Below are positions 27,653-60,966 of a DNA stretch of 64,000 bases, one piece after another; position 1 is the first letter of the stretch, and each line of letters starts with the position of its first letter. The position numbers and the translations under genes are program-made. This DNA is from Streptomyces sp. NBC_00376 (GTDB lineage: Bacteria; Actinomycetota; Actinomycetes; Streptomycetales; Streptomycetaceae): assembly GCF_036077095.1 (NCBI RefSeq), contig NZ_CP107960.1, positions 8,866,001 through 8,930,000 on the forward strand. The letters are read 5' to 3'. A model generated the notes under the pieces. The model searched no databases, was not told the origin of the DNA, and saw only the letters and a program-made list of their open reading frames with translations.

Positions 27653-27956
27653 GTAGAGCCACTTGTCGCCGGGCCGGGGCCGCCTCCGGCGCAGGCCGTT
27701 GGCGTAGGCCTGCCCGAACTTCGCACACCAGCGGCGGACCGTCTCGTGGGAGACGACCACGCCGCGCTCGAGCATCAGCTCCTCGACCTCGCGGAACGAC
27801 AGCGGGAAGCGGTGGTACAGCCACACACAGTGGGCAATGACCTCGACCGGGTACCGGTGCCCCTTGTACGACGGCGATGCGCTGTCCACGGACGACCCCT
27901 CCCAGCATGACCAACCAGAAGATCATCCCACCCGGTCAGTCAACGTGACAGTGCCC

Positions 27957-30890: not shown

Positions 30891-31077
30891 CCTGGGCGTG
30901 AGTGACGACTTCAAGCGCCTGGAATTGCGCGACTGCCCGATGTCCACCTGCGCCGCGCCAGCGGGCTCCCGGTGCCGGACCGGCAAGGGTAAGGTGGCCA
31001 TCCAGTAGCACACCGCTCGCTTCCGCCTCGTGCCCCAACTAGCCAAGGCACTCAGCGTGCCGACCCCGGCCGTACGC

Positions 31078-33110: not shown

Positions 33111-33249
33111 GGAGCCGTTGGGAGATGGCGCGCCGTGATTCACCGCAGCCCGGTCAGAGGAATCGGCTTGCTGGCCTCAGCCGCAGGCCCGTGGCCACCC
33201 GTAAAAACCTTCGCGCGTGCCGCCGTCCGGATGATGAGGTGACACGGTG

Positions 33250-34206
33250 ATGAACAACGATGAGGCGGCGGCTGTCCGGCCGTTGACACTGGCTTGGGTG
33301 AGCCGGCATCTGGAGGCCGGCGAGCGGATCGTCAAGGCCACGGCGCTGCACGGCGGCATCACCGCCGAGATGCGGCGGCTGACCATCGGGACGCGGGACG
33401 GAGGCACCCGTGACCTGGTGCTGCGGACCTACGTCGACCCGTTCTACGTGGAGCACGCCGAGGGCGGGCTGAATGGGGAGGCCGGCGCCCTGACCCTGCT
33501 CACGGGGACCGGCGTGCCGGCTCCTTCACTGGTCGCGGTTGATCCGACCGCCACGCAGTGCGAGTTTCCGTCGCTCCTGATGACACATCTGGCGGGCCGG
33601 ACGGTCCTCGACGATCAGGGAGTGGAGACGCGTGTTCGCCTGCTGGCCCGCCAACTCGTGGCGATCCACGCGTTACGACCCGCCGAGCGGCCCCGAAAAT
33701 ATGTGACGTTGACGACCGCCGACACCGTAGTCGTCCCGAAGGGCGCCGACGCGGCCGTATGGACCGCGGCGATCGACGTGATCCGCAAGCCCGCGCCGCC
33801 CTGTGAAGGGCGCTTCCTGCACCGGGACTTCCAGCCCGGCAACGTGCTGTTCGACGTACCGCCTTCAAACCCGGAAGATGCCCGCATCACCGGCGTCGTC
33901 GACTGGGCACCCTCCTGGGGTCCGGCGGATCTCGATGTGGCGCACTGCTCCGTCAATCTCGCGCTGCTGCACGGCCCGGCGTGGGGTATGCGGTTCGCCG
34001 AGGCGTACGAGGAGGCCGGCGGGGTATTGGCCGCGACCGCGAGCGAGCGGCTGTACTGGCGGGTGCGGGACGCGCTGGCCGTCTCGGAAGAAGTGCGGTC
34101 GGTGTCGCAGCCATGGCGGGAGGCCGGTAGGGCGGAGCTGACGACGCGAGCCGTGGAGGAGCGGCTGGATGCCTATGTCACCGCCTTGATGGACGCGCCG
34201 GGCTGA
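33250..34206 (+). CDS. Aminoglycoside phosphotransferase-like kinase
   Basis: 318 residues from ATG 33250, with GAGGTGA 8 bases upstream. The protein-kinase-like fold is shown by the Brenner motif FLHRDFQPGNVLF (catalytic Asp and Asn) and the metal-binding Asp in GVVDWAPSWG. The N-lobe has VLRTYVDPFY with the ATP-anchoring region. Relatives phosphorylate aminoglycosides, choline, homoserine or other small alcohols; the substrate cannot be told here, so resistance should not be assumed. It is followed within about 35 bp by a LexA-like winged-helix gene on the same strand. Confidence 0.85.
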   Translation: MNNDEAAAVRPLTLAWVSRHLEAGERIVKATALHGGITAEMRRLTIGTRDGGTRDLVLRTYVDPFYVEHAEGGLNGEAGALTLLTGTGVPAPSLVAVDPTATQCEFPSLLMTHLAGRTVLDDQGVETRVRLLARQLVAIHALRPAERPRKYVTLTTADTVVVPKGADAAVWTAAIDVIRKPAPPCEGRFLHRDFQPGNVLFDVPPSNPEDARITGVVDWAPSWGPADLDVAHCSVNLALLHGPAWGMRFAEAYEEAGGVLAATASERLYWRVRDALAVSEEVRSVSQPWREAGRAELTTRAVEERLDAYVTALMDAPG

Positions 34207-39705: not shown

Positions 39706-40104
39706 GCACGCATCGTATGCGGCGGATCAGCAGCCGCGTCGATCGCGTGTTCCAGGCCCGGCCCGAGACCTGGCCGACGTGGTGCGCCCGCACGTCAGCG
39801 GGCACTGTCACGTTGGCGAATGGCGTGGGAGGATCTTCGAGTTGATCACGGTGGAGGGGGGTCGTCCGTGGGGAGCGCGTCGCCGTCGTACAAGGGGCAC
39901 CGGTACCCGGTCGAGGTCATTGCCCACTGTGTGTGGCTGTACCACCGCTTCCCGCTGTCGTTCCGCGAGGTCGAGGAGCTGATGCTCGAGCGCGGCGTGG
40001 TCGTCTCCCACGAGACGGTCCGCCGCTGGTGTGCGAAGTTCGGGCAGGCCTACGCCAACGGCCTGCGCCGGAGGCGGCCCCGGCCTGGTGACAAGTGGCT
40101 CTAC

Positions 40105-40290
40105 CTTCTTGAACGGGTTGGTCCTCCCGTTCGTAGGGTGAGGACACCCAGGGGAGCTGGGTGTGGCTGACAAGTGGCTGCCGTTCGTGGCTTCAGGTGC
40201 TTGGCCGCCTGGCTCCCCACGACGACTCGGCCGCCGATTGGGAAGTGCGAACAAGTCGCTGTGTAGAGCAATGCCGGCGAGGTCGTCCGT
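40105..40290 (+). ncRNA. Predicted bridge RNA of the IS110 element, copy 2
   Basis: Elements in order: 7-bp hairpin GAACGGG/CCCGTTC (40111-40132); 7-bp hairpin ACACCCA/TGGGTGT (40144-40164); target loop with left guide GACAAGTGGC (40169-40178, equal to the target's left side plus core) and right guide CAGGTGC (40194-40200, complement of GCACCTG); donor loop closed by CGCCG/CGGCG and GACGAC/GTCGTC, with left guide ATTGGGAAG (40237-40245, equal to the element's right end) and right guide GTAGAGC (40263-40269, complement of GCTCTAC at the left end). Order and location agree with IS110-group bridge RNAs such as that of IS621. RNA ends are estimates. Confidence 0.85.
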
Positions 40291-40324
40291 GGTACGCAAG
40301 GCATGTACGACCGAATGGAGCACG

Positions 40325-41521
40325 ATGAGCCGGATATGGGCGGGAACCGACTGCGGCAAGACCCACCACCACTGCCTGGTCCTGGACAGCGAGGGCGACA
40401 CGCTGCTGTCGCGTCGGGTGGCCAACGACGAGCCGGAACTGCTGAAGCTGATCGGTGACGTCCTGGACCTCGCCGACGGCGGCAAGACGACCTGGGCGCT
40501 TGACATGACCGGCGGCGAGCCCGGCCTGCTGATCGCCCTTCTGGTCAACCATGGCCAGGAGCTCGTCTACATCCCCGGTATCGCGGTCAACCGGGCCACC
40601 GACAGCTACCGCGGCCAGGGCAAGACGGACGCCCGTGACGCCCGCGTGATCGCCGACCAGGCCCGGATGCGCCGCGACCTCCAGCCGATCCGCCCCGGCG
40701 ACGAAGCCACGCTCGAGCTGCGGCTGCTGACCGACCACCGCGTCGATCTGGTCGCCGACCGCACCCGCACCACCAACCGGCTCAAGGCCCTGCTGAACAG
40801 CATGTTTCCGGCCCTGGAACGGGCCCTCGACCTGGGTAACGTCGGCCCGCTGGTGCTGCTAACCGGTTACCAGACACCGGCAGCGATCCGCCGCGCGGGC
40901 AGTCGGCGGCTGACCGCCTGGCTGCGCAACCGCAAGGTCTGCAACGCTGCTGCCCTCGCCGAGAAGGTGGTTGAGGCCGCCGAGCGCCAGCACACCGCCG
41001 TCGTGGGTGAGAAGGCCATCGCGAAGATGGTGCACACCCTCGCCAAGGAGGTGATGGTCCTCAACGAGAAGATCACCGAGACCGACAAACTCATCGAGGG
41101 CCGGTTTCGCGAACACGAACTGGCCGACGTGATCCAGTCCATGCCCGGCATCGGCACGATCCTCGGTGCCGAGTTCCTCGTCGCCGTCGGCGGCAGCCTG
41201 GACGCCTTCCCCACGGCCGACCGGCTCGCGGCCTTCGCCGGCGTGGTCCCCGCCCCACGCGACTCCGGCCAGGTCAGCGGTAACGACCACCGACCGACGA
41301 GATACCACCGTCGCCTGCAGCGCGTCTTCTACATCTCCGCGCTGGTCAGCGTCCAACGAGACCCCAACTCACGGAAGTTTTACGACCGCAAGCGCGCCGA
41401 GGGGAAACGGCACGTCCAGGCCGTCCTCGCGCTCGCACGCCGTCGCGTCAACGTCCTGTGGGCTCTGATCCGTGACCGACGGTGCTACCAGGTCATACCC
41501 TCAGTGACGACGGCGGCTTGA
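40325..41521 (+). CDS. IS110-family transposase (bridge-RNA type), copy 2
   Basis: 398 residues. The RuvC-like DEDD domain has Asp9 in WAGTDCGKTHHH, an acidic residue near 60-65 (ALDMTGGEPG), and Asp102/Asp105 in GKTDARDARV. A helical linker follows, then the Tnp20 domain with SMPGIGTILGAEFLVAVGG and the Ser-containing PRDSGQVSGN (311-320), where the family's catalytic Ser lies. Such recombinases join donor and target DNA held by a bridge RNA. ATG 40325 (GGAG 4 bases upstream) opens the domain; the GTG at 40163 lies inside the guide RNA. Confidence 0.93.
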   Translation: MSRIWAGTDCGKTHHHCLVLDSEGDTLLSRRVANDEPELLKLIGDVLDLADGGKTTWALDMTGGEPGLLIALLVNHGQELVYIPGIAVNRATDSYRGQGKTDARDARVIADQARMRRDLQPIRPGDEATLELRLLTDHRVDLVADRTRTTNRLKALLNSMFPALERALDLGNVGPLVLLTGYQTPAAIRRAGSRRLTAWLRNRKVCNAAALAEKVVEAAERQHTAVVGEKAIAKMVHTLAKEVMVLNEKITETDKLIEGRFREHELADVIQSMPGIGTILGAEFLVAVGGSLDAFPTADRLAAFAGVVPAPRDSGQVSGNDHRPTRYHRRLQRVFYISALVSVQRDPNSRKFYDRKRAEGKRHVQAVLALARRRVNVLWALIRDRRCYQVIPSVTTAA

Positions 41522-42134
41522 CATCGGCATTGGGAAGCACCTGGACGAGGTCTTCGTGAAGATCAACGGAGAGCAGAAGTACCTGTGGCGGGCCGTTGAC
41601 GCCGACGGCAACGTGCTCGACATCCTGGTCCGGTCCCGCCGGGACAAGGCCGCGGCCCGGCGCTTCTTCCGCAAACTGCTCAAGAGAACCTGCTCGGTGC
41701 CGAGGGTGATCGTCACCGACAAGCTCCGCTCCTACGGCGCGGCCCACCGCGAGGTCATGCCCTCCGTAGAACACCGCGCCCACAAGGGCCTCAACAACCG
41801 GGCGGAGAACAGCCACCAGCCCACCCGCCAGCGCGAACACGCCATGAAAGGCTTCCGTAGCGTCGGCGGAGCCCAGCAGTTCCTGTCCGCGTTCAGCGGC
41901 ATCTCACCCCACTTCCGACCACGCCGCCACCTGATGACCGCCCCCGAATACCGCACCGAGATGACCACCCGCTTCGCCATCTGGGACCAGATCACCGGCG
42001 CTGCAAGCCGGCCCACCACGGCCTGAGCACGGAGCCGGAACCCGACCCCACCACACCCGACACACCATCAGGCACTCACACACCCAACAACGTGACAGCG
42101 CCCGCTGAAGTAATACGCGCCAGCGACCTCTCTT

Positions 42135-42248
42135 CGCCCCGGCCGCCGGCCGAGCCCGTCGGACCGTACGCGTCTCGGACGTCGCCCAACTCACCGGACT
42201 CGGCTCCTCCACCACCTCCCGCATCATGTCCACCCTCGAGCGCCTCGA
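42135..42248 (+). pseudogene. IclR-type regulator, helix-turn-helix fragment
   Basis: In one frame right of the IS6 end: TVRVSDVAQLTGLGSSTTSR followed by IMSTLERLEC, the HTH of an IclR-like protein. It is cut on both sides. Right of it (42249-42463) a frame with ADTWLRTHGKVWGSVATCHC may be another remnant, not identified. Confidence 0.5.
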
Positions 42249-42463
42249 GTGCCTTTATCTGGCCAGATTGACCGTGCTGACACGTGGCTGCGCACCCACG
42301 GCAAGGTCTGGGGCTCCGTCGCTACCTGTCACTGCGGTGAGCAGCGCAGCACTGCGCGGTCGCCGCTCGGCCGGGCCACGGACGCCAAGCGGCGCTGTGA
42401 CCTTGCTGGGGAGTTCGAGGCGCTGGTCGGTGGGCATCGCGCGTTGACCGCCGTGGTACCCGT

Positions 42464-42730
42464 TCACCTTCGCCGCCTCCGGCGCCTGCGCGGTCTTTCC
42501 GGGTGCTCCTCGGCAGCCGTTGCGGTCAGGTCGGCCCGGGCGTGGTCCTGCCCGGTCTCGCCCGCCGGGGCCAGCACCTCACCGACCCGCGAGCGGGCGG
42601 TGAACCACTCCCATTCCCGCTCGGCCACGGCCAACTCGGCCTGGATACGGTCAGCATCCTCCCGTAGCCCGTCCACGCGGCGGCGAGCACCCAGCTCACG
42701 CTGTTCTAACAGCCCAACCACCGACGGCAT
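42464..42730 (-). CDS. Small coiled-coil protein
   Basis: About 88 residues from ATG 42730: VVGLLEQRELGARRRVDGLR and EDADRIQAELAVAEREWEWF form a long charged helix, ending in an Arg-rich tail. Small proteins of this style are found beside transposase genes in streptomycetes, which is all I can offer. The stretch 42731-43047 has no gene I can support. Confidence 0.45.
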   Translation of the reverse strand: MPSVVGLLEQRELGARRRVDGLREDADRIQAELAVAEREWEWFTARSRVGEVLAPAGETGQDHARADLTATAAEEHPERPRRRRRRRR

Positions 42731-43047
42731 CCGCAACCTCCCGGGAAACGACTCAACGACAGGCCGCTACTCCCACAGGACCTACCGCGCTACGCCCGAC
42801 CAGCGGAAACGCAGCCCTCAGGTCCGGAAAGACAACAGCTTCTGAGGATGCCGCGTGGCATATGACCGCCGCTCTCCCGGCCGAGAGGTCTGCTGGGCCT
42901 GGGCCGGGACGACCTCGCCGAGGCTGTCCCACCGTGCGGTCATGTCGAATGATCTCCGGTGCGTTGAGCGTAATGGCGAAGGGGCCGAGGTTCGCTGCTG
43001 TGACGGCCATGCCGTCCGCGAGGGAGGGGAGGTGGGGGACCATCGCG

Positions 43048-46000
43048 TCACTTCCATGGTGGCGGGACGGGCTCGCCCCTGCCGGTTGGCCACGGAGTGG
43101 AGGTACGCATCGGGGCTGCTGGTTGGCTGTGGGGTCCGTCCGTGGAGCGGGTGCCGGCTGTGTCCTGTGGCTGAGTGGGGAAGGCCGGCAGGGTGGGGAA
43201 GGCTGGCAGGGAGGGGACTCGGACGGCCTGGGGAAAGTCGAGCACCTGGCCGGGGTCGTAGGTCGCCTTGACCCTTTGCAGGCGGGGGTAGTTGTCGGCG
43301 TAATAGGCGTGTTCCCAGCCCAGGAGTTCGGGGTCGGTGTCGTTGACGTAGGCCCCGGGGCCCAGGTGCATCTGCATGGCGGCGTGGGTGTTTCGCATCG
43401 AATCCAGCCGGGCGGCGGAGTCGGAGGGCGGGCATGTCCGGGGCCATGTGGTGATGTATTGAAGGACTGCCAGGGCGTTTCGGTGTGGAAACGCCGTCGC
43501 GCTGCTGGTGATGTCGGCCACGGCGCCTCCCAGGGAGTCGAGGTAGAAGCCGCCGGTGGCGCCGAGCCCGTGGAGGTCGTTGATGCCTGCGATCAGGATG
43601 GCGGTGGCGGCTTCGGTCATGGGTGCACGCACGATGTGCGACTTCCCGGCCCAGGCCATCCGGTCATCGCCGCCGGGGGTGTCACCCGAGTCGTTGCAGG
43701 CCCCCGGATCTGTGAAGGCAGGGGCGGGCCAGGCGGATTCGGAGTGCGTCGCGCTGTCGCGCAGGGGGTGGTCGGTGACCATGGCGGACTCGACGTAGCT
43801 GCCGGGTGTGATGTTGATCCGTTTCGGCGGGCGTCCAACGGCTGCGATCAGGCGGTCGATCACGCGGAGAAGCGAGGCGGTGCCGCCGATCCAGGCGCCG
43901 TGCACGATGGGTTGGGAGGGCCCGCTGCCATCGAGCAGGATCCGTACATCGCAGGAGACCTCGCGCGGTGTACGGGGGTCGGTGATCCAGTGCTGCCATC
44001 CGCACAGCGCGCTCGCCATGTCGGCGTGCGCCCACTGGATCTGGAAGTGCGCGAACGACCGGCCGGTGATGTCGACCGGTTGGAAGTCCAGGGCCGTGAC
44101 GACGCCGAAGTTGCCTCCGCCTGCGCCACGCAGGGCCCAGAACAGTTCGCGGTCGGGATCCTCGGGCGCGCAGGTGAGGTGGCGTGTGCGTCCGTCCGGG
44201 GTGACGATGGTCGCTCCGGTGAGCCGGTCGCAGGAAAGTCCCCAAGCGCGGGAGAAGGCACTCTTGCCGCCACCGAGGGTCAAGCCGGCGACCCCGACCG
44301 ATCCCCACCGTCCTGCTGCAATCGCCAGGTTGGAGCGTGCGAGGGTCTGTCCGGCGCTCGTGCTGCTGACACCGGCGCCCAGGCGCACCCTGTCGCGTGA
44401 GACGGTGATGCTGTTCAGGGCGGCGACATCGATCACCAGCCCTGGGGTGGTGGAGAAGCCTGCGTAGTTGTGGCCACCCGCGCGGACAGCGGTCGCTGTG
44501 CCGGTCTCGGCGGCGTAGGCCAGGCACGCCGCGGCGTCGTCCTCGTCTGCGATGCGGGCGATGGCTGCGGGCATGACGATGTCGTAGCGCTGGTTGTGCA
44601 GCACCCGGGCTTTGTCGTAGTCCGGGTCCCCCGGGCGCAGGAGCCGCCCGTGAAGCCTTCGTGCCAGCCGGGTGAGCTCCGCGTCGGAGCGGTGCCCGTG
44701 GGCCCGGACGGTGGGGCGTGATCCGGTGTGCGTCGTGACCGTACCGGTGGAAGGTGTCTTGACGGGGGTGATGGCCTGGGGCTGGGTGAAGAACTGGTCC
44801 GGGTCCACTGCGGCCTTGACGCGTTGCAGGCGGGGGTGGTTGTCGCCGTGATAGGCGGTTTCCCAGTCGTCGAGTTCGGGGTCCATGCCGTTCACGTAGC
44901 CGCCGGTGCCCAGGTGGGGGTGCATGGTGGTGTGGATGTCGCGGAGCCACTGCATGCGCTGTTCGATGTGGGGCTGCGGGGTGAACTCGTGCCAGTAGGA
45001 GTGGTATTGGACGACACCGACGGCCGACCGGTGGGGGAAGGCGGTGGCGTCCGGTGCCACGTCGTTGACCGCCCCGCCCATGGAGTCGATGAGCAGCCCT
45101 CCGGCTCCGGTGACGCCGTTGAGCCGGTGGAGCCGGTTGACCGCGGCGACCATGTCGTCGGCTGCCACCGGGGTCATGGGCCGGCGGACGATCTGCGACT
45201 TGGCTGCGAAGGCAACGCGGGGCCCGATGGTTCCCCCGCCCCAGCGCTCCGGTTCGGCCGCCGCCTGGACGTAGCTGACGGGGTGGGTGACGCGGTCGCT
45301 CTCGGGCCTGCCGACGGCGGTGACCAGGCTGTCGAGGAGCGGCTGGACTTGGCGGGGGGTGCCGATGAAGGTTCCGGTGACAACGAGTTCGGAGGGTGCG
45401 CCTCTGTCGCTGAGCTGTTCGATGGCGGTGCACAGTTCGCGCGGCAGGTTCGGGTCGGCGTTCCAGGCTGTCCAGCCTTGGATGAGGGCGGACATGTCCT
45501 TCATGGGCCAGCGCATGACGATGCGGGTGAAGGCCATGTCGCTGATGTCGACGGTGGTGTAGTCCAGTGCGGTGACCACGCCGAAGTTGCCTCCGCCACC
45601 GCCCAGCATGGCCCAGTGGAGATCGCGGTCGGCACCCAGGGAATGAGCGTTGACGCTGCGGAGTTGTCCGTCCGCGGTGACGATGTCCACACCCGTGAGG
45701 TGGTCGATGGCCAGGCCCCAGGACCGGGTGAAGGCGCTCAGGCCGCCACCCAGGGTCGCTCCGGCCACCCCGATGGAGGGGCAGCGCCCCAGCGGCAGGC
45801 CCGCTCCGGATGCGGCCAGTGCCGTGTGGGCCGCCATCCCCAGCGTTCCCGCACCCAGCCTGACCCGGCCGTCGCCCACCGTGATCGAGTTCAGTTCGCG
45901 CAGGTGGACCACGAGGCCGGGACCGGTGGAGTACCCCGCGTAGCTGTGGCCGCCGGAGCGGATCGTCAGTTGCACGCCGCGCTCTCGCGCGAAGGTCACG

Positions 46001-48735
46001 CACGCGGCAACGTCCTCGGCGGTGGCCGGGTAGGCCACGGCTTGCGGGTGCACGTCGTCGTAGCGCTGGTTGACCACGAGCCGTGCCTGCTCGTAGCCGG
46101 CGTCGTGAGGCTCCAGCAGTGTTCCGCTCATCCTGACGTCGAGGGCCGACCAGTCCACGGTGCTCGGGGTTCGGCTGCTGGACCGGATTCTTCGGTGGGT
46201 CGCGGAGCACGGCGACGGGGTGGCCGGGTCCTGGGTGAGCGAGGCGGAGGTGAGGAGGGCCGGCAGGGTGTGGAGGGAGGCCAGGACCGGAAAGTCGAAC
46301 GGCAGCGGGCGGGGGCCCGTCTGGTCGGGTACGGAGGTGAATCCGCCGTCGGAGTCCTGGTGGGCCAGGAGGTAGCTGATGCCACGGCGGGCGCACGCGT
46401 GGTTGCCGTGGCGGGCCAGGACGGGCACGGCCTGTGCCGTGGACAGCACGTCGCTGGAGTCGTTGTTCTGCCGGCCCCAGCCTCCGTCGGCGTTCTGCAC
46501 GGCAGTCAGGTGTGACACTGCTCGCGCGGTCGCCTCGGCGATCCGGGCGGCGAGGGAAGCGGAAGGCTGCGGCACCGCGTGCAGGGCGTTGAGCGTGCGG
46601 AGGATCCCGCTGGACTCGCTGATCGTCCAGCTGCGCTCGAAGGTTCCGTCAGGTCGCTGGGCGTCGAGGACGAACCCGGCGGACCTGGTGAGCAATGCGT
46701 GGTGCCGCCCGGTGGGGGCGAGTGCGAGGAGGGCCCCGGCGGTCATGTCCAGGTCGGGCGCATCGCTGCTGACCCAGGTTGGGAAGCCGCCGTCCGGCCC
46801 GGCCATGGCTTCCAGGTATCGGGTGGCCCGTCGCAGGTGGGAGGCGTAGCGCTCGGGGGCACTGGCCTCGAGGAACTCCATGCAGCGGGTGGTGGTGTCG
46901 AGGTCTGTCTGGGACATGGCGCTGGCGAACGGCCAGCCACCGTCGGGCGCCTGCCAGGAGGCGACGAACTCGCCCATCCGGCCCGTGAGCGGGCGCAGCC
47001 GGTCATCGGCAAGGAAGGCCAGTCCGGCGACGGCTGCGAGCCAGAGGTCCTGGCTGTCGAGAAACGGCAGCCCTCCGTCGCGGTTCTGAGCCAGCGTCAT
47101 CCTCAGAATGCCGTCGTCCACCACCGGGTGGCCGGGGCGGAAGCCGCGAACGGCGTGCAGGGCGAGCAGGTGGGTGGTGGCGCCGGCCTCCCAGAACAGC
47201 CGGTTGCGGCCGGTGTCCAGCGAGTCGACCAGCCGGTTGCGTTCGGCTCCGGTCACCATGTGCGGGTGGCCGGTCGCCCGGGCGCAGATCACCCGGATGG
47301 CGAGGAGATTGACATCGGTGTACGTCGTGATCCGGTCCGGCGGCATCGACGGCAGGAGGTCGTCGTCCGTCATGAGGGCGTCGCACAGCAGGTGAAGCAC
47401 TGCCCGCATCATGGCGGCCTTGAACCGGCCGCGCCCACCGGTTCCGCGGTTCAGCTGTCCGGCGAGCTCCACGACAGCCTGGCCTGCCCGTCCCGCTGTT
47501 TCGGCGGGGTGGAGACAGGCATCGATCAAAAGGGCGTCGACGGGATCCGCGCCCACCCGACGTGAGCGCAGAAACAAGGTCAGCTGTTCCTGCTGGGGCT
47601 CGTGTGTCCGTGCGGCGCGCAGGAGGGCGAGGAACAGTGCCGATTCCAATACCCGGCTGGCACACCGGTCGGTCACCGCTCCTCCGGGCGAGACGGCCAA
47701 CGACAGATGCCGGGTGAGGCGGTCGATGCTCCTCGGCACGTCTGTCGGTGCCTGCCAGGGGCCGGGCGATCCGGTGGCCGGACCAAAGGGCGGAGGATTG
47801 TTGCCGGCCCGCTCTGGCTCTGCCAGCCGGGCGGCGTCGGGGCCTGCTGCCTCGGGGTCGTTGCGTCGCGTTTCTCCCTGCCAGGCCAGGGCCCCGTCGA
47901 GGAAGGAGCGGATCCGATCGACTCGTACGCTCAGACCTGCACTGTGCGGTCCTTGAGCGAGCGCGGTTGCCGCTGCCGCGTCGAAGGCGTCCATGCGTTC
48001 GCTGATCATCGTGCGGGCGATCGCGGCAGCCTCGTGGTGGGTGCACCGGCGTTCACGCGCGAGGATCGAGACGAGGTTGTCCGTTCCTTCAGCGGATTCC
48101 CGTCCCGCCGATGCCAGGTCGTTGGTCCACGCGACGAGATCCGCGGTGGCCTCGCGCAGACTCTCCAGGTCGCTCTCCTCGCCGGACAACCCGCGCTCCA
48201 CCAAAGCGAGCATCGGCAGCACCGTGATGGTGTGCCGGCGCATCTCCACGTAGCGGGACAGCGCAAGGGGAGTGCGCCTGGTGCGCAGCAGGGATTCTTC
48301 ACAGGTGGCGTCGGCAAAGTCGCGGTAGCGGGCGGCGAACCGCCTTGCCCATTGCGGGCTGGTGGCCGGTGTCGAGCGGTTCCACAGGTTCACGATCGCC
48401 CGCACCGCGGGGATGGACAGATCAGATGTGGTGGCCGACCCGTCCACCACGGAGACCAGGGAGTCCATGAGGGCCCGTACGTGCGAGGGACTGCCGTTGC
48501 CCGGTCCACGGTCGAGGCTGTCGTCGACCAGCGCGATGAAGGCACCCCACTGTGCCAGGAGTTCGAGTTCGGCCGGGTCCGCTCGGGGAGCGACGAAGCC
48601 GGCCATCCTTCCCTGCCCCATCCTCTCCAGACGCCGCTTCTCGTCCGGGGTCGTGAGCAGTCCCATGCGGTCGGCCCAGGCGCGTGCACGGCGTTCTGCC
48701 CGGTCCCACTGCCGGTTGCAGGTGGTCGGTTGGTT
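43048..48735 (-). CDS. Four-part fusion: class I terpene synthase, class II-like cyclase, two FAD oxidases
   Basis: 1,895 residues from ATG 48735, one uninterrupted frame. Residues 1-290: class I terpene synthase with Asp-rich DDSLD (72-76) and the Mg-binding triad NDLASAGRE (206-214). Residues 300-840: alpha/alpha-barrel terpenoid cyclase/prenyltransferase repeats (QAPDGGWPF, QNADGGWGRQ, QDSDGGFTS) with DLDTT (612-616) at the class II general-acid position. Residues 863-1325: berberine-bridge-type FAD oxidase with His931 (RSGGHSYAG) and Cys986 (GRCPSIGVAG), both expected flavin-linking residues. Residues 1350-1850: a second such oxidase with His1423 (RAGGHNYAG) but Trp1478 instead of Cys. 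Each ends with the BBE motif PRLQRVKA. The tail is Pro-rich. No signal peptide. Confidence 0.88.
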   Translation of the reverse strand, partial: NQPTTCNRQWDRAERRARAWADRMGLLTTPDEKRRLERMGQGRMAGFVAPRADPAELELLAQWGAFIALVDDSLDRGPGNGSPSHVRALMDSLVSVVDGSATTSDLSIPAVRAIVNLWNRSTPATSPQWARRFAARYRDFADATCEESLLRTRRTPLALSRYVEMRRHTITVLPMLALVERGLSGEESDLESLREATADLVAWTNDLASAGRESAEGTDNLVSILARERRCTHHEAAAIARTMISERMDAFDAAAATALAQGPHSAGLSVRVDRIRSFLDGALAWQGETRRNDPEAAGPDAARLAEPERAGNNPPPFGPATGSPGPWQAPTDVPRSIDRLTRHLSLAVSPGGAVTDRCASRVLESALFLALLRAARTHEPQQEQLTLFLRSRRVGADPVDALLIDACLHPAETAGRAGQAVVELAGQLNRGTGGRGRFKAAMMRAVLHLLCDALMTDDDLLPSMPPDRITTYTDVNLLAIRVICARATGHPHMVTGAERNRLVDSLDTGRNRLFWEAGATTHLLALHAVRGFRPGHPVVDDGILRMTLAQNRDGGLPFLDSQDLWLAAVAGLAFLADDRLRPLTGRMGEFVASWQAPDGGWPFASAMSQTDLDTTTRCMEFLEASAPERYASHLRRATRYLEAMAGPDGGFPTWVSSDAPDLDMTAGALLALAPTGRHHALLTRSAGFVLDAQRPDGTFERSWTISESSGILRTLNALHAVPQPSASLAARIAEATARAVSHLTAVQNADGGWGRQNNDSSDVLSTAQAVPVLARHGNHACARRGISYLLAHQDSDGGFTSVPDQTGPRPLPFDFPVLASLHTLPALLTSASLTQDPATPSPCSATHRRIRSSSRTPSTVDWSALDVRMSGTLLEPHDAGYEQARLVVNQRYDDVHPQAVAYPATAEDVAACVTFARERGVQLTIRSGGHSYAGYSTGPGLVVHLRELNSITVGDGRVRLGAGTLGMAAHTALAASGAGLPLGRCPSIGVAGATLGGGLSAFTRSWGLAIDHLTGVDIVTADGQLRSVNAHSLGADRDLHWAMLGGGGGNFGVVTALDYTTVDISDMAFTRIVMRWPMKDMSALIQGWTAWNADPNLPRELCTAIEQLSDRGAPSELVVTGTFIGTPRQVQPLLDSLVTAVGRPESDRVTHPVSYVQAAAEPERWGGGTIGPRVAFAAKSQIVRRPMTPVAADDMVAAVNRLHRLNGVTGAGGLLIDSMGGAVNDVAPDATAFPHRSAVGVVQYHSYWHEFTPQPHIEQRMQWLRDIHTTMHPHLGTGGYVNGMDPELDDWETAYHGDNHPRLQRVKAAVDPDQFFTQPQAITPVKTPSTGTVTTHTGSRPTVRAHGHRSDAELTRLARRLHGRLLRPGDPDYDKARVLHNQRYDIVMPAAIARIADEDDAAACLAYAAETGTATAVRAGGHNYAGFSTTPGLVIDVAALNSITVSRDRVRLGAGVSSTSAGQTLARSNLAIAAGRWGSVGVAGLTLGGGKSAFSRAWGLSCDRLTGATIVTPDGRTRHLTCAPEDPDRELFWALRGAGGGNFGVVTALDFQPVDITGRSFAHFQIQWAHADMASALCGWQHWITDPRTPREVSCDVRILLDGSGPSQPIVHGAWIGGTASLLRVIDRLIAAVGRPPKRINITPGSYVESAMVTDHPLRDSATHSESAWPAPAFTDPGACNDSGDTPGGDDRMAWAGKSHIVRAPMTEAATAILIAGINDLHGLGATGGFYLDSLGGAVADITSSATAFPHRNALAVLQYITTWPRTCPPSDSAARLDSMRNTHAAMQMHLGPGAYVNDTDPELLGWEHAYYADNYPRLQRVKATYDPGQVLDFPQAVRVPSLPAFPTLPAFPTQPQDTAGTRSTDGPHSQPAAPMRTSTPWPTGRGEPVPPPWK

Positions 48736-48849
48736 CATGGTTCGCTCGCCCTTGGTGGAAGTTCGTGTGCGGCTGGACAGCGGCGGGACGGGCCGCGTTC
48801 GAGGGGCTGGTGACCGACCTCGTTCCGCGAGCTCATCCGTAGGGAGGCG

Positions 48850-49302
48850 GCCGGGATGCGGCTGGCTCCGAGCAGGGGGCCACGCCGAACCGGCGGTGCG
48901 GGCCCGCCGGTTCATACGGACCGATACCGGGCTCCGCGGCGCTCCTGGGCCGGGCTTCCTGGAGGCGGATCGTGACCCGCTGGTGCTTGCCGGCGGCCCG
49001 GTGCTCCGACGTTCTCTTCGGCGGCGCGACCGGTGCCTCGCCCACCAACGTCGTGAACGTACGGCGGCCCGGCCCGGCCTCCTTCGATATCTCCCGCAGG
49101 CTCATCGCACCGCACTCGACAGACCTCGAACGGCCTCAACTCCAGCCGCCGATGCGGGTCCAAAGCCATCGTCAGTCGCCCCTCCGCCACCCCGAAGCCG
49201 ACCACAGCAGACTTGCGGCACCCACCCGTCACCGCATCAACTTTGGTGCACTCTCCTCCGTACGAGGTGATGCACGATCACTTGTACGGCGCCGACTGTC
49301 GG
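48850..49302 (-). pseudogene. IS21 relic: left end and broken istA
   Basis: The minus strand carries pieces of an IstA like that at 59551, in changing frames: MALDPHRRLELRPFEVC, then MSLREISKEAGPGRRT and VAPPKRTSEHRAAGKH, then a deletion and QRVTIRLQEARPRSA. Upstream DNA to about 49302 matches the left terminal region of IS21 (CACTTGTACG...GCCGAC). Several indels mark a dead copy. Confidence 0.7.
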
Positions 49303-49340
49303 CGTACTCCTGTGTAAGACCCCGCACGAATAGGCGGGTG

Positions 49341-49450
49341 TCATGGTCGGTGGTGGGGGCGTGTATCCCAGCGGTGGGTGGTCCAGACCCGGCGGATCAG
49401 ACTACGGATGGTGATGATGGCGTCGGCGAGGTCGAAGAAGGCGTCGATGA
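49341..49450 (-). pseudogene. IS5-type transposase, C-terminal fragment
   Basis: Immediately left of IS6 copy E the minus strand encodes LIDAFFDLADAIITIRSLIR and RVWTTHRWDTRPHHRP, then stops at 49341-49343. This is the characteristic end of a streptomycete IS5-type transposase; the rest was lost at the IS6 junction. Confidence 0.65.
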
Positions 49451-50314
49451 GGAGCTGTCACGTTGTTGGGTGTGTGAGTGCCTGATGGTGCGTCGGGGCG
49501 TGGCGGGGGTCGGGTTTCGGGCCGGTGCTCAGGCTGCGGCGGGCTGGCCGGCAGCGCCGGTGACCTGGTCCCAGATGGCGAAGCGGATGGTCATCTCGGC
49601 TCGGTAGCCGGGAGCGGTCATCAGGTGGCGGCGGGGTCGGAAGTGCGGTGAGATGCCGCTGAACGCGGCCAGGAACCGCTGGGCTGCGCCGACGCTGAGG
49701 AAGCCTTTCATGGCGCGTTCGCGTTGCCGGGTCGGCTGGTGGCTGTTCTCCGCCCGGTTGTTCAGGCCCTTGTGGGAACGGTGCTCGACCGAGGGCATCA
49801 GCTCCCGGTGGGCGGTGCCGTAGGAGCGGAGCTTGTCGGTGACCATGACTCTGGGCACCCGCTGCTGCTTCTTCATGAGCTTGGTCAGGAACCGCTTGGC
49901 GGCCTTTGCGTTCCGCCTCGACTGGACCAGGATGTCCAGGACGTTGCCGTCCTGGTCGACGGCCCGCCACAGATACTGCCGCACACCGTTGATCTTGACG
50001 AACACTTCGTCGAGATGCCACTTGTCGCCAGGCCGGGGCCGTCGGCGGCGCAGTCCGTCGGCGTAGGCCTGGCCGAACTTGGCGCACCAACGGCGCACGG
50101 TCTCGTGGGAGACGAGGACGCCGCGCTGGAGCATGAGCTCTTCGACCTCGCGGAACGACAGCGGGAAGCGGTGGTACAGCCACACGCAGTGGGAGATGAT
50201 CTCGGCCGGGTACCGGTGCCCCTTGTACGACGGCGGCGTACTGTCCACGGACGACCCCTCCCCGCATGACCAACCAGAAGATCATCCCACTTGGTCAGCC
50301 AACGTGACAGTCCC
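49451..50314 (-). mobile_element. IS6-family element, copy E, different subtype
   Basis: About 864 bp, ends GGAGCTGTCACGTTG (49451) and CAACGTGACAGTCCC (50314). It is clearly diverged from copies B-D (for instance QRRVPRVMVTDK in the protein). Flanks GTCGATGA and CTTCCCCG do not match. The guide-RNA target region here reads GACAAGTGGCATCTC, with one mismatch and one wobble to the right guide. Confidence 0.88.
49529..50248 (-). CDS. IS6-family DDE transposase, subtype E
   Basis: 239 residues, complete, GTG start. Catalytic motifs WHLDEVFVKI, VMVTDKLRSYG and NNRAENSHQP are intact, and the HTH SFREVEELMLQRGVLVSHET is present. About 85% similar by eye to the copy at 35006. It probably is an active gene. 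Confidence 0.92.
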   Translation of the reverse strand: MDSTPPSYKGHRYPAEIISHCVWLYHRFPLSFREVEELMLQRGVLVSHETVRRWCAKFGQAYADGLRRRRPRPGDKWHLDEVFVKINGVRQYLWRAVDQDGNVLDILVQSRRNAKAAKRFLTKLMKKQQRVPRVMVTDKLRSYGTAHRELMPSVEHRSHKGLNNRAENSHQPTRQRERAMKGFLSVGAAQRFLAAFSGISPHFRPRRHLMTAPGYRAEMTIRFAIWDQVTGAAGQPAAA

Positions 50315-51074
50315 CTTCCCCGGCATCATCCCGCGCCACCTGTTCCTGCAGCGCACCGGGAACCGGCAGGGCGACAAGCCCTACCCGTCGGGCACCTACA
50401 GCTGGATGCTCCGCGAGTTCAGCAAGATCGTGAAGATCACCGACAGCAAGGGCAAGCCCGTCGGGCTCAGCCACACCCACCGCTTCCGTCACACCAAGCT
50501 GACCCGGCTCGCCGAACTCGGCCTGCCCGTCCACGTGCTGATGCGCTATGCCGGGCACGCGACCCCGTCGATGACGATGCACTACGTCGCTGCCCGCCAG
50601 GAACACGCCGAGCAGGCGTTCCTGGCCACCGCGAAACTCCGCGCGGACGGCACCCAGGTCGCCTTCTCCCGCGACGACCACGACAGCCTCCACCTGTTCA
50701 ACCGGGCCGACCGGTTCCTGCCCCACGGCTGGTGCCTACTGCCGCCACTGCAGACCTGCGACAAGGGAAACGCCTGCCTGACCTGCTCGGTCTTCGTCAC
50801 CGACGCCTCTCATCAGAGTGCTCTGGAACGGCAGTTGGCCGAGACCGAGGCCCTGTTCAACCGCAGCACCACCGCATTCCAGGAACGGCACGGCCGCCCG
50901 ATGCCCGAGGACAACGTCTGGCTACTGCAACGGCCGGCCGAGCGCGCGGCCCTCACCAAGCTCCTGGACACCATCCGCTCCAAGCCCGGACGCGCCGTCC
51001 AGGGCGCCGGCTGCGGCGCAGCCCCCACCGGCCCTGTCCCGCCTCGACCTCGACCGTCACCGAAGGACCCGCCC
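50315..51074 (+). pseudogene. Tyrosine site-specific integrase, 5' truncated, 3' frameshifted
   Basis: Begins at the IS6 edge without a start. The catalytic C-terminal part holds [20 protein letters not shown] (HxxR), [16 protein letters not shown] (GH and nucleophile Tyr) and a zinc-like Cys cluster [14 protein letters not shown], as in Tn554-type TnpA/B recombinases. The first catalytic Arg is lost. Another frame ends [13 protein letters not shown] with TGA overlapping the next ATG (ATGA). An indel near 50990-51040 seems to have joined the gene to the following one. Confidence 0.75.
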
Positions 51075-51524
51075 ATGACCGACGACGCTCGCGCCAAGCG
51101 CACCCAGACACTTTCCACCGCCGCGAAGGCCAAGTCCCAGGCCAAGACCGCCGCGGCAGAGAAGGCGATCCGCACCCTGGTCAAACGCGGTGAGCCGATC
51201 ACCTTCCAGGCCGTCCAGCGCGAGGCCGGCGTCTCCCACGCCTTCCTCTATAACCACCCCGACCTGCGAGGACGCATCGAACGACTCCGGGCCCAAGCCC
51301 GTCCCGCCCCCGCACCGGCCGCTCCGGCCGACGAGCAGAGCACCCTCGTCCTCGCGCTGACCGGCCAGATCACCCGCCTCAAGAAGCAGCACCGAGAAGA
51401 ATCACAGGCACTGCGGGATGCCCTGGAGCAGGCACACGGCGAGAATCTCGACCTCCGCCGCGAACTCGCTCGCCGCGGCGGAGACACCCCACCGCCACAA
51501 GCCCGAGTCATCGGACCCTGCTGA
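51075..51524 (+). CDS. DUF6262-type transposon accessory protein (TnpC-like)
   Basis: 149 residues from ATG 51075 with AAGGA upstream. The N-terminal HTH-like part ([40 protein letters not shown]) and C-terminal coiled coil ([20 protein letters not shown]) match the small protein that follows integrases in Tn554-like actinobacterial transposons, where it is thought to aid recombination. In this copy it is in frame with the upstream integrase. Confidence 0.75.
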
Positions 51525-52951: not shown

Positions 52952-53047
52952 CCAGGCCGAGGTGCCCGGTTGCAGGCTGTGCTGTTCTCCGGGCCTGGTC
53001 GGTTCCGGCGTCGTCGTGCTCGACCTGGTGGGCCAGGGGACCGCTGG
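52935..53047 (+). pseudogene. Start of an unknown gene, cut by IS6 copy F
   Basis: From ATG 52935: MDPNPDQAEVPGCRLCCSPG followed by VVVLDLVGQG, then IS6. A CxxCC pattern suggests metal binding. It was coupled to the upstream gene (17-bp overlap). Confidence 0.4.
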
Positions 53048-53350
53048 GGCGCTGTCACGTTGGCTGACAGGGTGGGAGGATCCTCGGGCTGATCACGGTG
53101 GAGGGGGTCGTCCGTGGAGGGCATGTCGCCGTCGTACAAGGGGCACCGGTATCCGGTCGAGGTGATCTCGCACTGCGTGTGGCTGTACTTCCGGTTCCCG
53201 CTCAGTTTCCGTGAGGTCGAGGAGCTGATGCTGGAACGCGGCGTGATCGTCTCGTACGAGACGGTCCGCCGCTGGTGCCTGAAGTTCGGTCAGCAGTACG
53301 CCAACGGACTGCGCCGCCGGCGGCCCCAGCCCGGCGACAAGTGGCTCTAC

Positions 53351-53536
53351 CTTCTTGAACGGGTTGGTCCTCCCGTTCGTAGGGTGAGGACACCCAGGGG
53401 AGCTGGGTGTGGCTGACAAGTGGCTGCCGTTCGTGGCTTCAGGTGCTTGGCCGCCTGGCTCCCCACGACGACTCGGCCGCCGATTGGGAAGTGCGAACAA
53501 GTCGCTGTGTAGAGCAATGCCGGCGAGGTCGTCCGT
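53351..53536 (+). ncRNA. Predicted bridge RNA, copy 3
   Basis: Same sequence as at 40105-40290. Target guides 53415-53424 (GACAAGTGGC) and 53440-53446 (CAGGTGC); donor guides 53483-53491 and 53509-53515. Against the F-type target the right guide forms one G-T wobble, otherwise full pairing. Confidence 0.82.
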
Positions 53537-53570
53537 GGTACGCAAGGCATGTACGACCGAATGGAGCACG

Positions 53571-54767
53571 ATGAGCCGGATATGGGCGGGAACCGACTGC
53601 GGCAAGACCCACCACCACTGCCTGGTCCTGGACAGCGAGGGCGACACGCTGCTGTCGCGTCGGGTGGCCAACGACGAGCCGGAACTGCTGAAGCTGATCG
53701 GTGACGTCCTGGACCTCGCCGACGGCGGCAAGACGACCTGGGCGCTTGACATGACCGGCGGCGAGCCCGGCCTGCTGATCGCCCTTCTGGTCAACCATGG
53801 CCAGGAGCTCGTCTACATCCCCGGTATCGCGGTCAACCGGGCCACCGACAGCTACCGCGGCCAGGGCAAGACGGACGCCCGTGACGCCCGCGTGATCGCC
53901 GACCAGGCCCGGATGCGCCGCGACCTCCAGCCGATCCGCCCCGGCGACGAAGCCACGCTCGAGCTGCGGCTGCTGACCGACCACCGCGTCGATCTGGTCG
54001 CCGACCGCACCCGCACCACCAACCGGCTCAAGGCCCTGCTGAACAGCATGTTTCCGGCCCTGGAACGGGCCCTCGACCTGGGTAACGTCGGCCCGCTGGT
54101 GCTGCTAACCGGTTACCAGACACCGGCAGCGATCCGCCGCGCGGGCAGTCGGCGGCTGACCGCCTGGCTGCGCAACCGCAAGGTCTGCAACGCTGCTGCC
54201 CTCGCCGAGAAGGTGGTTGAGGCCGCCGAGCGCCAGCACACCGCCGTCGTGGGTGAGAAGGCCATCGCGAAGATGGTGCACACCCTCGCCAAGGAGGTGA
54301 TGGTCCTCAACGAGAAGATCACCGAGACCGACAAACTCATCGAGGGCCGGTTTCGCGAACACGAACTGGCCGACGTGATCCAGTCCATGCCCGGCATCGG
54401 CACGATCCTCGGTGCCGAGTTCCTCGTCGCCGTCGGCGGCAGCCTGGACGCCTTCCCCACGGCCGACCGGCTCGCGGCCTTCGCCGGCGTGGTCCCCGCC
54501 CCACGCGACTCCGGCCAGGTCAGCGGTAACGACCACCGACCGACGAGATACCACCGTCGCCTGCAGCGCGTCTTCTACATCTCCGCGCTGGTCAGCGTCC
54601 AACGAGACCCCAACTCACGGAAGTTTTACGACCGCAAGCGCGCCGAGGGGAAACGGCACGTCCAGGCCGTCCTCGCGCTCGCACGCCGTCGCGTCAACGT
54701 CCTGTGGGCTCTGATCCGTGACCGACGGTGCTACCAGGTCATACCCTCAGTGACGACGGCGGCTTGA
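53571..54767 (+). CDS. IS110-family transposase (bridge-RNA type), copy 3
   Basis: Identical 398-residue protein to those at 26236-27432 and 40325-41521; ATG 53571 with GGAG upstream. Identity of three copies implies recent movement or gene conversion. Confidence 0.92.
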   Translation: MSRIWAGTDCGKTHHHCLVLDSEGDTLLSRRVANDEPELLKLIGDVLDLADGGKTTWALDMTGGEPGLLIALLVNHGQELVYIPGIAVNRATDSYRGQGKTDARDARVIADQARMRRDLQPIRPGDEATLELRLLTDHRVDLVADRTRTTNRLKALLNSMFPALERALDLGNVGPLVLLTGYQTPAAIRRAGSRRLTAWLRNRKVCNAAALAEKVVEAAERQHTAVVGEKAIAKMVHTLAKEVMVLNEKITETDKLIEGRFREHELADVIQSMPGIGTILGAEFLVAVGGSLDAFPTADRLAAFAGVVPAPRDSGQVSGNDHRPTRYHRRLQRVFYISALVSVQRDPNSRKFYDRKRAEGKRHVQAVLALARRRVNVLWALIRDRRCYQVIPSVTTAA

Positions 54768-55314
54768 CATCGGCATTGGGAAGCATCTGGACGAGGTCTT
54801 CATCAAGATCAACGGTGAGCAGAAGTACCTGTGGCGGGCTGTCGACCAGGACGGCAACGTGCTGGACATCCTGGTGCAGAGCCGCCGGGACATGGCTGCG
54901 GCCAGGCGCTTCTTCCGCACGCTGCTGACCAAGACGGGCGGGGTGCCGCGGGTGATCGTCACGGACAAGCTCCGCTCCTACGGCGCGGCCCACCGCGAGG
55001 TCATGCCCTCCGTCGAGCACCGTTCCCACAAGGGCCTGAACAACCGGGCCGAGAACAGTCATCAGCCCACCCGGCAACGCGAACGGGCGATGAAAGGCTT
55101 CCGCAGCGTGGGCGCCGCGCAGCGTTTCCTGTCCGCGTTCAGCGGCATCTCACCCCACTTCCGGCCCCGCCGCCACCTGATGACCGGCACCCAACACCCC
55201 GCCGAAATGACCGTCCGCTTCACCATCTGGGAGCAGATCACCGGCGTCACCGGCCGGCCTGCCGCCGCCTGAGCCCAGGGCCGGCACCCGGCCCCACCAC
55301 ACCTCGACACACCG

Positions 55315-59550: not shown

Positions 59551-60966
59551 GTGGTGTTAGATCCGCATCGGTGGCTGGAGCTGAGGCGGTTTCGCGGGCT
59601 GTACGAGTCCGGTGCGATGAGCCTGCGGGAGATCGCGAAGGAGACCGGGCTGAACCGTCGCACGGTCGCCAAGTACCTGTCGGGTGAGGTGCCGGTTGCG
59701 CCGCCGAAGAGGGCGGCGAACGGTCAGCCGCGTCAGCGGGTGGTGGACGAGGTCGCGCCGCTGATCGATGCGATGCTGCGGGCGGAGATCCTGCTCAAGG
59801 GGGCGGTGATCCACGAGCGGCTGGTGGCGGAGTACGGGTTCACCGGCAACTACCAGCGCGTGAAGATGTACTTGCAGGAGGCCAGGCCGCGGGTCGCGGA
59901 GGAACTGGGCATCAGCCCGCGTGAGCTGGCCGGGCTGCACCGCCGGTTCGAGGTGGTGCCCGGAGCTCAGGCCCAGGTGGACTGAGGTGACGAGGGCAAG
60001 ATCCTCGCCCATGTCGGGACCCCGAAGGTCTACTCGTTCCACATGACGCTGTCCTACTCGCGGGACCCGTTCTGCTGCTTCACCACCAGCCAGGACCTGG
60101 CCACGTTCTTCGACTGCCACCGTCAGGCGTTTGCCCACTTCGGCGGTGTCCCGATGTCGATCGTCTACGACCGGACCAAGACCGTGGTCCGTCGGCATGT
60201 CGCCCCTGGTGAGGCCGTTCCTCTGCATCCGGAGGCGGTCGCATTCGCCGGTCACTACGACTTCGATCCCGATGTCCTGGCCGCATACAGGCCCACTGGA
60301 AAGGGCCGGGTCGAGCGCCAGGTCCTGATCGTCCGCGACCACGTCCTGGCCGGACGCGCCTTCTCCTCCACCGAGGAACTGGACTCCGCGTTCACTGCCT
60401 GGGTTCCGCTGCGGCGGGCCAAGGTCCACGGCACCCACGGCGAGGTCATCGGTCTGCGAGCGGTCCGTGATCACATGGCTCTCCGCCCACTGCCGGCTAC
60501 TCCATATGTGGTCGCCCAGCGGCATCTCCGCTACGTCGGCAAGGACTGCCTCGTCGCTTTCGAAGCGAACCTCTACTCGGTGCCAGCTCTACGGATCCGC
60601 CCGTGGCAGCTGGTCGAGGTCAGGGCCACGAAGTCCCAGGTCACCCTCCATGCCACCACACCCGACCGCCAGGGAGAGACCCTGCTGGCCACCCACCCGC
60701 GGGCAGTTGGCCGCGGTGCCAGGGTCGTGGACGAGCGGCACTGGGATGGTCTGCCCACCGGAGCCGGCCGCCGCGTCACGGCGGGCGGAGACTTGCCCGC
60801 ACCCCGCCAGCAGAACCGCGGGTCGGAGGCGGGATCGCTGTTGGCCTTGCTGAACCGGGCGGCGGCCACCCAGGTCGAGGTCGGCCGACGGCCGTTGTCG
60901 GTCTATGACGAGCTGACCGGCACCCGCCCCTTCACCACCCACCCAAGCACGAAGGAATCGTCTTGA
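59551..60966 (+). pseudogene. istA: istA transposase with an in-frame stop
   Basis: From GTG 59551: VVLDPHRWLELRRFRGLYES, HTH MSLREIAKETGLNRRTVAKY, then AQVD followed by TGA (59983-59985) where the family has Trp (QVDWGDE), then GDEGKILAHVGTPKVYSFHM and the rest of the rve domain (DLATFFDCHRQAFAHFGGVP, MSIVYDRTKTVVRRH) to 60966 in the same frame. A single TGG-to-TGA change next to the first catalytic Asp accounts for it. Without it the protein would have 471 residues. Confidence 0.88.

What the first reader, a model, noticed from the sequence alone, without database searches (positions are those of the whole stretch)
43048..48735. One gene encodes a class I terpene synthase, a class II-like cyclase and two flavin oxidases
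A single 1,895-codon frame joins DDSLD plus NDxxSxxxE (class I), QW-like repeats plus DLDTT (class II-like barrel), and two berberine-bridge-type FAD oxidases. I know of fusions of two terpenoid domains, but not of one with tandem BBE-type oxidases. The protein could cyclise a prenyl diphosphate, ionise it and oxidise the product in one assembly.
Basis: partly seen in the sequence, partly recalled or inferred. Interest (0 to 1): 0.95.

Follow-up and report, generated by a model that had tools for sequence, protein, structure and literature searches.

The report
One-gene terpenoid pathway: cyclases plus oxidases
A single bacterial gene, likely from a Streptomyces, encodes in one unbroken protein two different terpene-forming enzymes and two flavin oxidases that are usually separate proteins; it likely builds and oxidises a terpenoid on its own, which would make it a portable one-gene pathway.

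Summary
A 1,896-codon gene (minus strand, 48738-43048) encodes a class I terpene synthase (DDSLD, NDLASAGRE), a class II cyclase (DLDTT) closest in fold to drimenyl diphosphate synthase, and two BBE-type FAD oxidases. It is not an assembly accident: five other proteins share the order in one frame, two with a fifth, SDR, domain, and 32 carry one oxidase. All four domains are under purifying selection (dN/dS 0.20-0.29). BBE2 is an old paralogue lacking the flavin-linking Cys in 6 of 6 copies. No neighbouring gene family is shared by more than two of 16 loci compared; the gene lies 24 kb from the end of its 8.94-Mb contig among IS6/IS110 elements. Domain order is alpha-first, unlike the reported gamma-beta-alpha bacterial fusions; unfused relatives include adjacent class II/class I gene pairs. 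Several relatives are broken or lack the oxidase. Products are unknown: serial class II then class I cyclisation of GGPP followed by two oxidations is favoured; an FPP/drimane route is the main rival. Eight literature searches aimed at such fusions, in an open-licence library, listed none. New variant of a known kind (fused bifunctional terpene synthases), with an architecture apparently not described before.

The parts
43048..48738 (-). whole gene: class I TS - class II TC - BBE1 - BBE2, 1,896 aa + stop
   Evidence: same order in P0001, P0002, P0003, P0005 (= L017) and L009
47851..48738 (-). alpha (class I) terpene synthase domain, aa 1-296
48511..48525 (-). DDSLD metal motif, aa 72-76
   Evidence: each of the three Asp is D in 56 of 56 letters at its column
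48097..48123 (-). NSE metal motif NDLASAGRE, aa 206-214
   Evidence: DDxxD and NSE intact in 39 of 40 BBE-carrying rows
47752..47850 (-). linker 1, aa 297-329, mostly disordered in the model
   Evidence: pLDDT under 50 over 296-327 of the model; dN/dS 1.06 over a slightly longer stretch
46231..47751 (-). class II terpene cyclase, aa 330-836
46891..46905 (-). DLDTT motif, aa 612-616; D614 is the expected general acid
   Evidence: aligned with D303 of SsDMS; second Asp D in 54 of 54 and next Thr in 54 of 54 letters
44752..46158 (-). BBE1, BBE-type FAD oxidase, aa 861-1329; H931 and C986 expected to link FAD twice, I989 at the O2-gatekeeper position
   Evidence: dN/dS 0.196
43201..44652 (-). BBE2, second BBE-type FAD oxidase, aa 1363-1846; H1423 kept, W1478 in place of Cys, V1481 at the gatekeeper position
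   Evidence: 6 of 6 copies; dN/dS 0.217
48739..49298 (-). upstream stretch alignable to L009 (93% over the whole match); the only flank shared with it
39858..42109 (+). IS6/IS240-type element interrupted by an IS110 element, downstream side of the gene
49449..50315 (-). IS6/IS240-type copy on the upstream side, inverted relative to the other
   Evidence: repeats D1, D2, I5, I6, I8, I10

Best explanation
One gene encodes, in a single frame, a class I terpene synthase, a class II terpene cyclase and two BBE-type flavin oxidases, and this protein likely makes an oxidised terpenoid by itself: a prenyl diphosphate, most likely C20 GGPP, would be cyclised by protonation at the class II site (D614), then ionised at the Mg-dependent class I site (DDSLD/NSE), and the product would be oxidised in turn by BBE1 and BBE2. 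SHOWN: the frame, the four domains, the kept motifs, same-order homologues, purifying selection on all four domains, and no gene neighbourhood shared by more than two of the 16 loci compared. INFERRED: that all four sites are active, the order of reactions, the substrate length, hydride abstraction from an alcohol or activated C-H by the oxidases, and hand-over between tethered domains. BBE1 is expected to hold FAD by His and Cys; BBE2 by His alone, with the Val gatekeeper found in oxidases, so it would probably perform a different oxidation step. The N-to-C order class II, BBE1, BBE2 (and SDR in relatives) is at least consistent with successive steps.
For: Profiles and motifs. Class II fold and general acid as in SsDMS. 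TS-TC model pLDDT 89.3, pTM 0.90. Four of 39 hits share the tandem order; L009 is a fifth, seen as DNA. dN/dS against L009: TS 0.286, TC 0.248, BBE1 0.196, BBE2 0.217; linker 1, linker 2 and tail 1.06, 1.73, 0.96, linker 3 0.33, from few changes. Class I motifs intact in 39 of 40 BBE-carrying rows, against 0 of 8 rows without BBE in the separate TS-TC clade (tree; largely one clade, so few events). No neighbour family shared by more than two of 16 loci. For GGPP: best PDB sequence match of the alpha domain is a type I diterpene synthase; unfused class II relatives stand beside class I genes in at least 5 of 8 genomes, one with polyprenyl synthetase and GcpE; reported bacterial fused enzymes are diterpene cyclases/synthases (PMC11469919, parts 1-2 of 5 read); and, from general terpene chemistry (recalled), a bicyclised FPP no longer has an allylic diphosphate for a class I site.
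Against: No product, substrate or expression data. The nearest solved class II enzyme uses FPP, and NCBIfam's best match for the alpha domain, below cut-off, is a sesquiterpene synthase (isoafricanol synthase 3.8e-34). The Tyr of the class I RY pair (motif recalled) is Asn here. The near-copy P0004 (99% over its matched part) is frameshifted inside BBE1 and another tandem copy is probably in two pieces (P0056/P0058). The BBE1-BBE2 arrangement is not confidently predicted (pTM 0.52). No sigma-70-type promoter or terminator match was found by the consensus scan of 42100-49460.
Confidence: 0.5

Rival explanations
1. Drimane route: the class II site turns FPP into a drimenyl- or monocyclofarnesyl-type diphosphate, the class I domain removes or ionises the diphosphate, and the oxidases convert the alcohol to aldehyde and acid.
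For: SsDMS is the closest solved structure by sequence and fold; Phe248 of SsDMS is kept, Tyr505 is Phe; known drimenol enzymes pair a class II site with a phosphate-removing partner (Nudix in cav, PMC11035983 parts 1-2 of 3; HAD domain with DxDTT in AsDMS, PMC9128629 passages); the best alpha-domain profile is a sesquiterpene synthase.
Against: SsDMS is also the best solved match of the unfused relatives L107 and L110, so the match does not discriminate; drimenyl diphosphate is not allylic (recalled chemistry); no HAD or Nudix domain among the Pfam matches.
Confidence: 0.27
2. The class I and class II domains work on separate substrates and fusion only keeps them co-expressed.
For: About 30-residue disordered linker; two bacterial fused enzymes could be split into working halves (PMC11469919).
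Against: Class I/class II gene pairing in at least 5 of 8 unfused relatives suggests a shared pathway.
Confidence: 0.1
3. BBE2 is not a catalyst but a fixed structural or regulatory domain.
For: Cys replaced by Trp and the next Pro by Gly in 6 of 6 BBE2 copies; long BBE2 stem branch; absent from the 33 single-BBE rows.
Against: His, YxN motif and a Val gatekeeper kept in 6 of 6 copies; dN/dS 0.217; monocovalent BBE-like enzymes such as EncM are active (PMC11375781, PMC12632287 passages).
Confidence: 0.1
4. The fusion is a dead or accidental reading frame (assembly error or pseudogene).
For: Broken copies exist: P0004, probably P0056/P0058, L020, L022, L023; the gene sits among transposon debris near a contig end.
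Against: Same order in one frame in P0001, P0002, P0003, P0005 and L009; purifying selection in every domain; gaps against L009 lie only in linker 1 and the tail.
Confidence: 0.03

Closest known systems
Bacterial bifunctional diterpene cyclases/synthases (CseDCS, ChjDCS, StrDCS; PMC11469919)
   Same: Class I and class II terpene sites in one bacterial polypeptide.
   Different: The five reported have order gamma-beta-alpha with DxDD and no oxidase is described; here alpha comes first, the motif is DxDTT, and one or two flavin oxidases (in some relatives SDR or GXWXG/DUF4334) follow.
Drimenyl diphosphate synthase SsDMS (PDB 7XQ4 and relatives) and CavC
   Same: Same class II fold over 488 residues, general acid kept.
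   Different: SsDMS is stand-alone, DxDD, with a separate Nudix hydrolase gene; about 35% identity.
HAD-like terpene cyclases (AsDMS, AstC, AacA)
   Same: DxDT[T] motif; a class II cyclase fused to a second domain.
   Different: The partner is a HAD-like domain and the cyclase a single beta domain; no class I synthase fold and no flavin oxidase.
BBE-like flavoprotein oxidases (Tcz9/Clz9 9P1O/9P1P, EncM, Physcomitrella BBE-like 1)
   Different: The solved members listed carry one oxidase unit; here two are joined in tandem to terpene cyclases.
Unfused class II/class I gene pairs in the window's genus (L105-L108, L110)
   Same: About 41% identical class II protein beside a class I synthase gene.
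   Different: Separate genes, class II first in four and class I first in L110; no BBE gene among the called ORFs of those stretches (blastp 1e-5).

Membership tests
Fused bifunctional class I/II terpene synthase | class I metal motifs DDxxD and NSE in an alpha domain | tested here: met
   DDSLD 72-76, NDLASAGRE 206-214; Terpene_syn_C_2
Fused bifunctional class I/II terpene synthase | class II domain with catalytic Asp motif | tested here: met
   DLDTT 612-616, D614 aligned to D303 of SsDMS; variant of DxDD
Fused bifunctional class I/II terpene synthase | gamma-beta-alpha order as in the five reported bacterial enzymes | tested here: not met
   alpha is N-terminal; compared with PMC11469919
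Fused bifunctional class I/II terpene synthase | sequential class II then class I catalysis | not testable with these tools
   needs enzyme assays
SsDMS-type drimenyl diphosphate synthase | class II fold of SsDMS | tested here: met
SsDMS-type drimenyl diphosphate synthase | DxDD motif | tested here: not met
   DLDTT; fourth position Thr
SsDMS-type drimenyl diphosphate synthase | FPP to drimenyl diphosphate | not testable with these tools
   no assay
HAD-like terpene cyclase | N-terminal HAD phosphatase-like domain | tested here: not met
   no HAD family among the six Pfam matches at E up to 1; the N-terminus is Terpene_syn_C_2
BBE-like flavoprotein (BBE1) | FAD_binding_4 + BBE, His and Cys for bicovalent FAD | tested here: met
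   H931, C986; the bonds themselves are not shown
BBE-like flavoprotein (BBE2) | FAD_binding_4 + BBE and linking His | tested here: met
   H1423
BBE-like flavoprotein (BBE2) | Cys for bicovalent FAD (typical, not universal) | tested here: not met
   W1478 in place of Cys in 6 of 6 BBE2 copies
EncM-type flavin-N5-oxide oxygenase (BBE2) | EncM oxygen-pocket residues | tested here: inconclusive
   V1481 aligns with position 139 of EncM (one search shows the T139V chain 6fyd); its meaning for the N5-oxide is recalled, not tested

The most novel reading that the evidence does not exclude
A terpenoid 'megasynthase': a complete scaffold-forming and oxidative pathway packed into one polypeptide and one transferable gene, with five catalytic domains in its largest relatives, built from an unfused class II/class I gene pair by stepwise domain gain and spread across phyla without any gene cluster.
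Probability: 0.5. Interest if true: 0.9.

Novelty: new variant of a known kind. Interest (0 to 1): 0.8.

Why it matters
Terpenoid pathways are normally gene clusters with separate cyclases and oxidases. A gene that carries cyclisation and two oxidations in one chain would be a ready-made, clonable pathway, a natural test of whether covalent tethering channels reactive terpene intermediates, and a differently ordered (alpha-first) fusion of class I and class II synthases to set against the origin of plant terpene synthases. Genome mining that selects terpene genes by neighbouring tailoring genes could pass over it.

Tried and rejected
Recent tandem duplication of the oxidase: rejected (the grouping was suggested by the tree, which the test's own note counts as a weakness). 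Assembly artefact: rejected. A hidden gene cluster: 20 ORFs that I picked between 26 and 62 kb gave transposases, recombinase and integrase-like frames, a DUF1963 protein, an APH-type phosphotransferase and frames without a family; no P450 or prenyl synthase among them; the other ORFs of the window were not scanned. An SDR remnant in the window: none at E 1e-8. Plasmid copies: no tblastn match at E 1e-100 in 72,556 plasmid records. RNA families at 42000-50000: none. Promoter/terminator consensus: none. FPP versus GGPP could not be decided from the tree: SsDMS is the only characterised class II sequence in it and the root is weak. Literature: ten library searches, eight aimed at such fusions or at bacterial class II/fused terpene synthases and two at flavin gatekeepers and SsDMS residues; no listed title or abstract describes a terpene synthase fused to a BBE-type oxidase. 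Some listings were capped (20 of 23; 15 of 38), the library holds only open-licence papers, and the SsDMS paper and two reviews were not held, so absence from print is not established.

Full report
OBSERVATION. The minus-strand frame runs from ATG at 48738 to the stop at 43048 and gives 1,896 aa. My tool queries used 43051-48735 and so count residues one lower than the numbers given here. Pfam finds Terpene_syn_C_2, SQHop_cyclase_C, and FAD_binding_4 and BBE in two stretches each.

NOT AN ARTEFACT. Of 39 proteins (7,991 candidates scored), four share the tandem order (P0001, P0002, P0003, P0005), one is a frameshifted near-copy (P0004), 32 have one oxidase (P0006-P0037), one has one oxidase plus GXWXG/DUF4334 (P0038), and P0039 matches 7% of the query only. 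P0003 and P0005 carry an SDR domain as well. L009 is a further tandem gene seen as DNA in one frame; L017 is the DNA of P0005. Against L009, dN/dS is 0.286 (TS), 0.248 (TC), 0.196 (BBE1), 0.217 (BBE2); linkers 1 and 2 and the tail are 1.06, 1.73 and 0.96, linker 3 is 0.33, from few changes; the alignment gaps lie in linker 1 and the tail.

RESULTS AGAINST A TIDY STORY. P0004 is frameshifted in BBE1; P0056 and P0058, from contigs of the same length, are probably two pieces of one tandem gene; L020, L022 and L023 are truncated or change frame; L021 and P0066 are lone BBEs that nest inside the family; in L109 the TS lies in another frame from TC-BBE. Fourteen rows have TS-TC without BBE: eight fall in a separate TS-TC clade; five lie within the BBE-bearing clade and P0047 near the family's base; one of these (P0044) is labelled partial and P0045 departs at its end, but why their oxidase is missing was not checked.

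ORIGIN. In the class II tree (66 rows, quick method, SH-aLRT only) the fused family is one clade (100), the tandem members are one branch (90), and the 11 unfused cyclases and SsDMS lie outside. In 392 genomes of the window's genus 13 had a class II match at E 1e-90: five (the window's genome, G190, G378, G270, G166) are family members at 53% identity or more, eight are unfused at 41-44%. In at least five of those eight a class I synthase gene is adjacent; one also has polyprenyl synthetase and GcpE; the other three were searched over shorter stretches or without a profile scan of the neighbours. In a phylum-wide draw of 396 genomes only the window's own matched. The oxidase tree (83 rows) puts the family's BBEs apart from the outside ones (100) except P0066, with P0038's BBE branching first (a long branch, flagged), then BBE2 as sister to BBE1 plus the remaining singles. 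A smaller careful tree (35 rows) agrees (100/100), and holding BBE2 with the tandem BBE1 is rejected (AU p 0.00027; the question arose). So the second oxidase looks old: either single-oxidase members lost it or it was recruited from a sister line. P0037 has a class II domain of the TS-TC clade but an oxidase nested among the single BBEs; L109, whose class II part is 71% identical to L104, shows the same. This suggests domain exchange. Class I motifs are intact in 6 of 6 tandem, 32 of 33 single-BBE, 1 of 1 BBE+DUF4334, 6 of 14 no-BBE and 3 of 3 fragment rows; the nine failures are the TS-TC clade with P0037. That is largely one clade, hence few events.

CONTEXT. Comparing called ORFs around 16 loci (14 relatives, L048 and the window), only the gene itself recurs widely (15 loci); other shared families link two loci at most (ORFs picked by a codon-position GC rule, so genes may be missed). 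L009 and the window share only one match, 49298-43193. The gene ends 24 kb from the end of contig C1 (8,939,048 bases); in G166 two copies lie about 55 kb from either contig end, in G270 one about 34 kb from an end. It stands between IS6/IS240-type copies, one interrupted by IS110. Relatives occur in Nannocystis (L010, L016) as well as in actinomycetes, so transfer between phyla is likely. I infer a self-contained gene; that no other gene is needed is untested.

MECHANISM. Best reading: class II protonation, class I ionisation, two flavin oxidations. GGPP is favoured because serial class II/class I use needs an allylic diphosphate after the first step (general chemistry, recalled), because reported bacterial fusions are diterpene enzymes (PMC11469919, parts 1-2 of 5 read), and because of the unfused relatives' surroundings. 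FPP remains possible through SsDMS likeness. The order of domains does not fix the order of steps.

NOVELTY. PMC11469919 reports five putative bacterial fusions among 15,498 species, all gamma-beta-alpha, three of them active. Here alpha is first and oxidases follow. The BBE review PMC11375781 has no word beginning with 'terpen' or 'fusion' in its main text. The searches named under Tried and rejected listed no such fusion; the library is limited to open-licence papers. I class it as a new variant of fused terpene synthases, with an architecture apparently undescribed.

Noticed in passing
window 25648-27899, 39858-42109, 53047-55303: Three IS6/IS240-type elements each interrupted by an IS110 element; the first two are a 2,252-nt exact inverted pair, the third is 94% complementary to the first.
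   Followed up: partly
L017 (= P0005), P0003: Five-domain relatives of about 2,140 aa: TS-TC-BBE-BBE-SDR in one frame; they branch first within the tandem clade of the class II tree, so the window lineage may have lost the SDR.
   Followed up: partly
L018 10001-14494 (= P0038): Relative with GXWXG and DUF4334 domains after a single BBE; its BBE branches at the base of the family (long branch).
   Followed up: partly
L104 (G166 C1) and the second copy at C1 9068001: A TS-TC gene without oxidase in two copies about 55 kb from either contig end, as expected for terminal inverted repeats; its class I NSE motif is altered.
   Followed up: partly
L024 10085-12991: Two BBE-type domains in tandem (about 30% identical to the query) in a Pseudonocardiaceae genome; no TS or TC match in the 23-kb stretch.
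   Followed up: no
L105 2545-13287: Two class I synthases, a class II cyclase, polyprenyl synthetase and GcpE together: a likely diterpenoid cluster.
   Followed up: no
window 33247-34206; 31030-31740; 50079-51524; 60043-61736: APH-type phosphotransferase, serine recombinase, integrase-like/DUF6262 frame and an IS21-type pair in the same stretch near the contig end.
   Followed up: no
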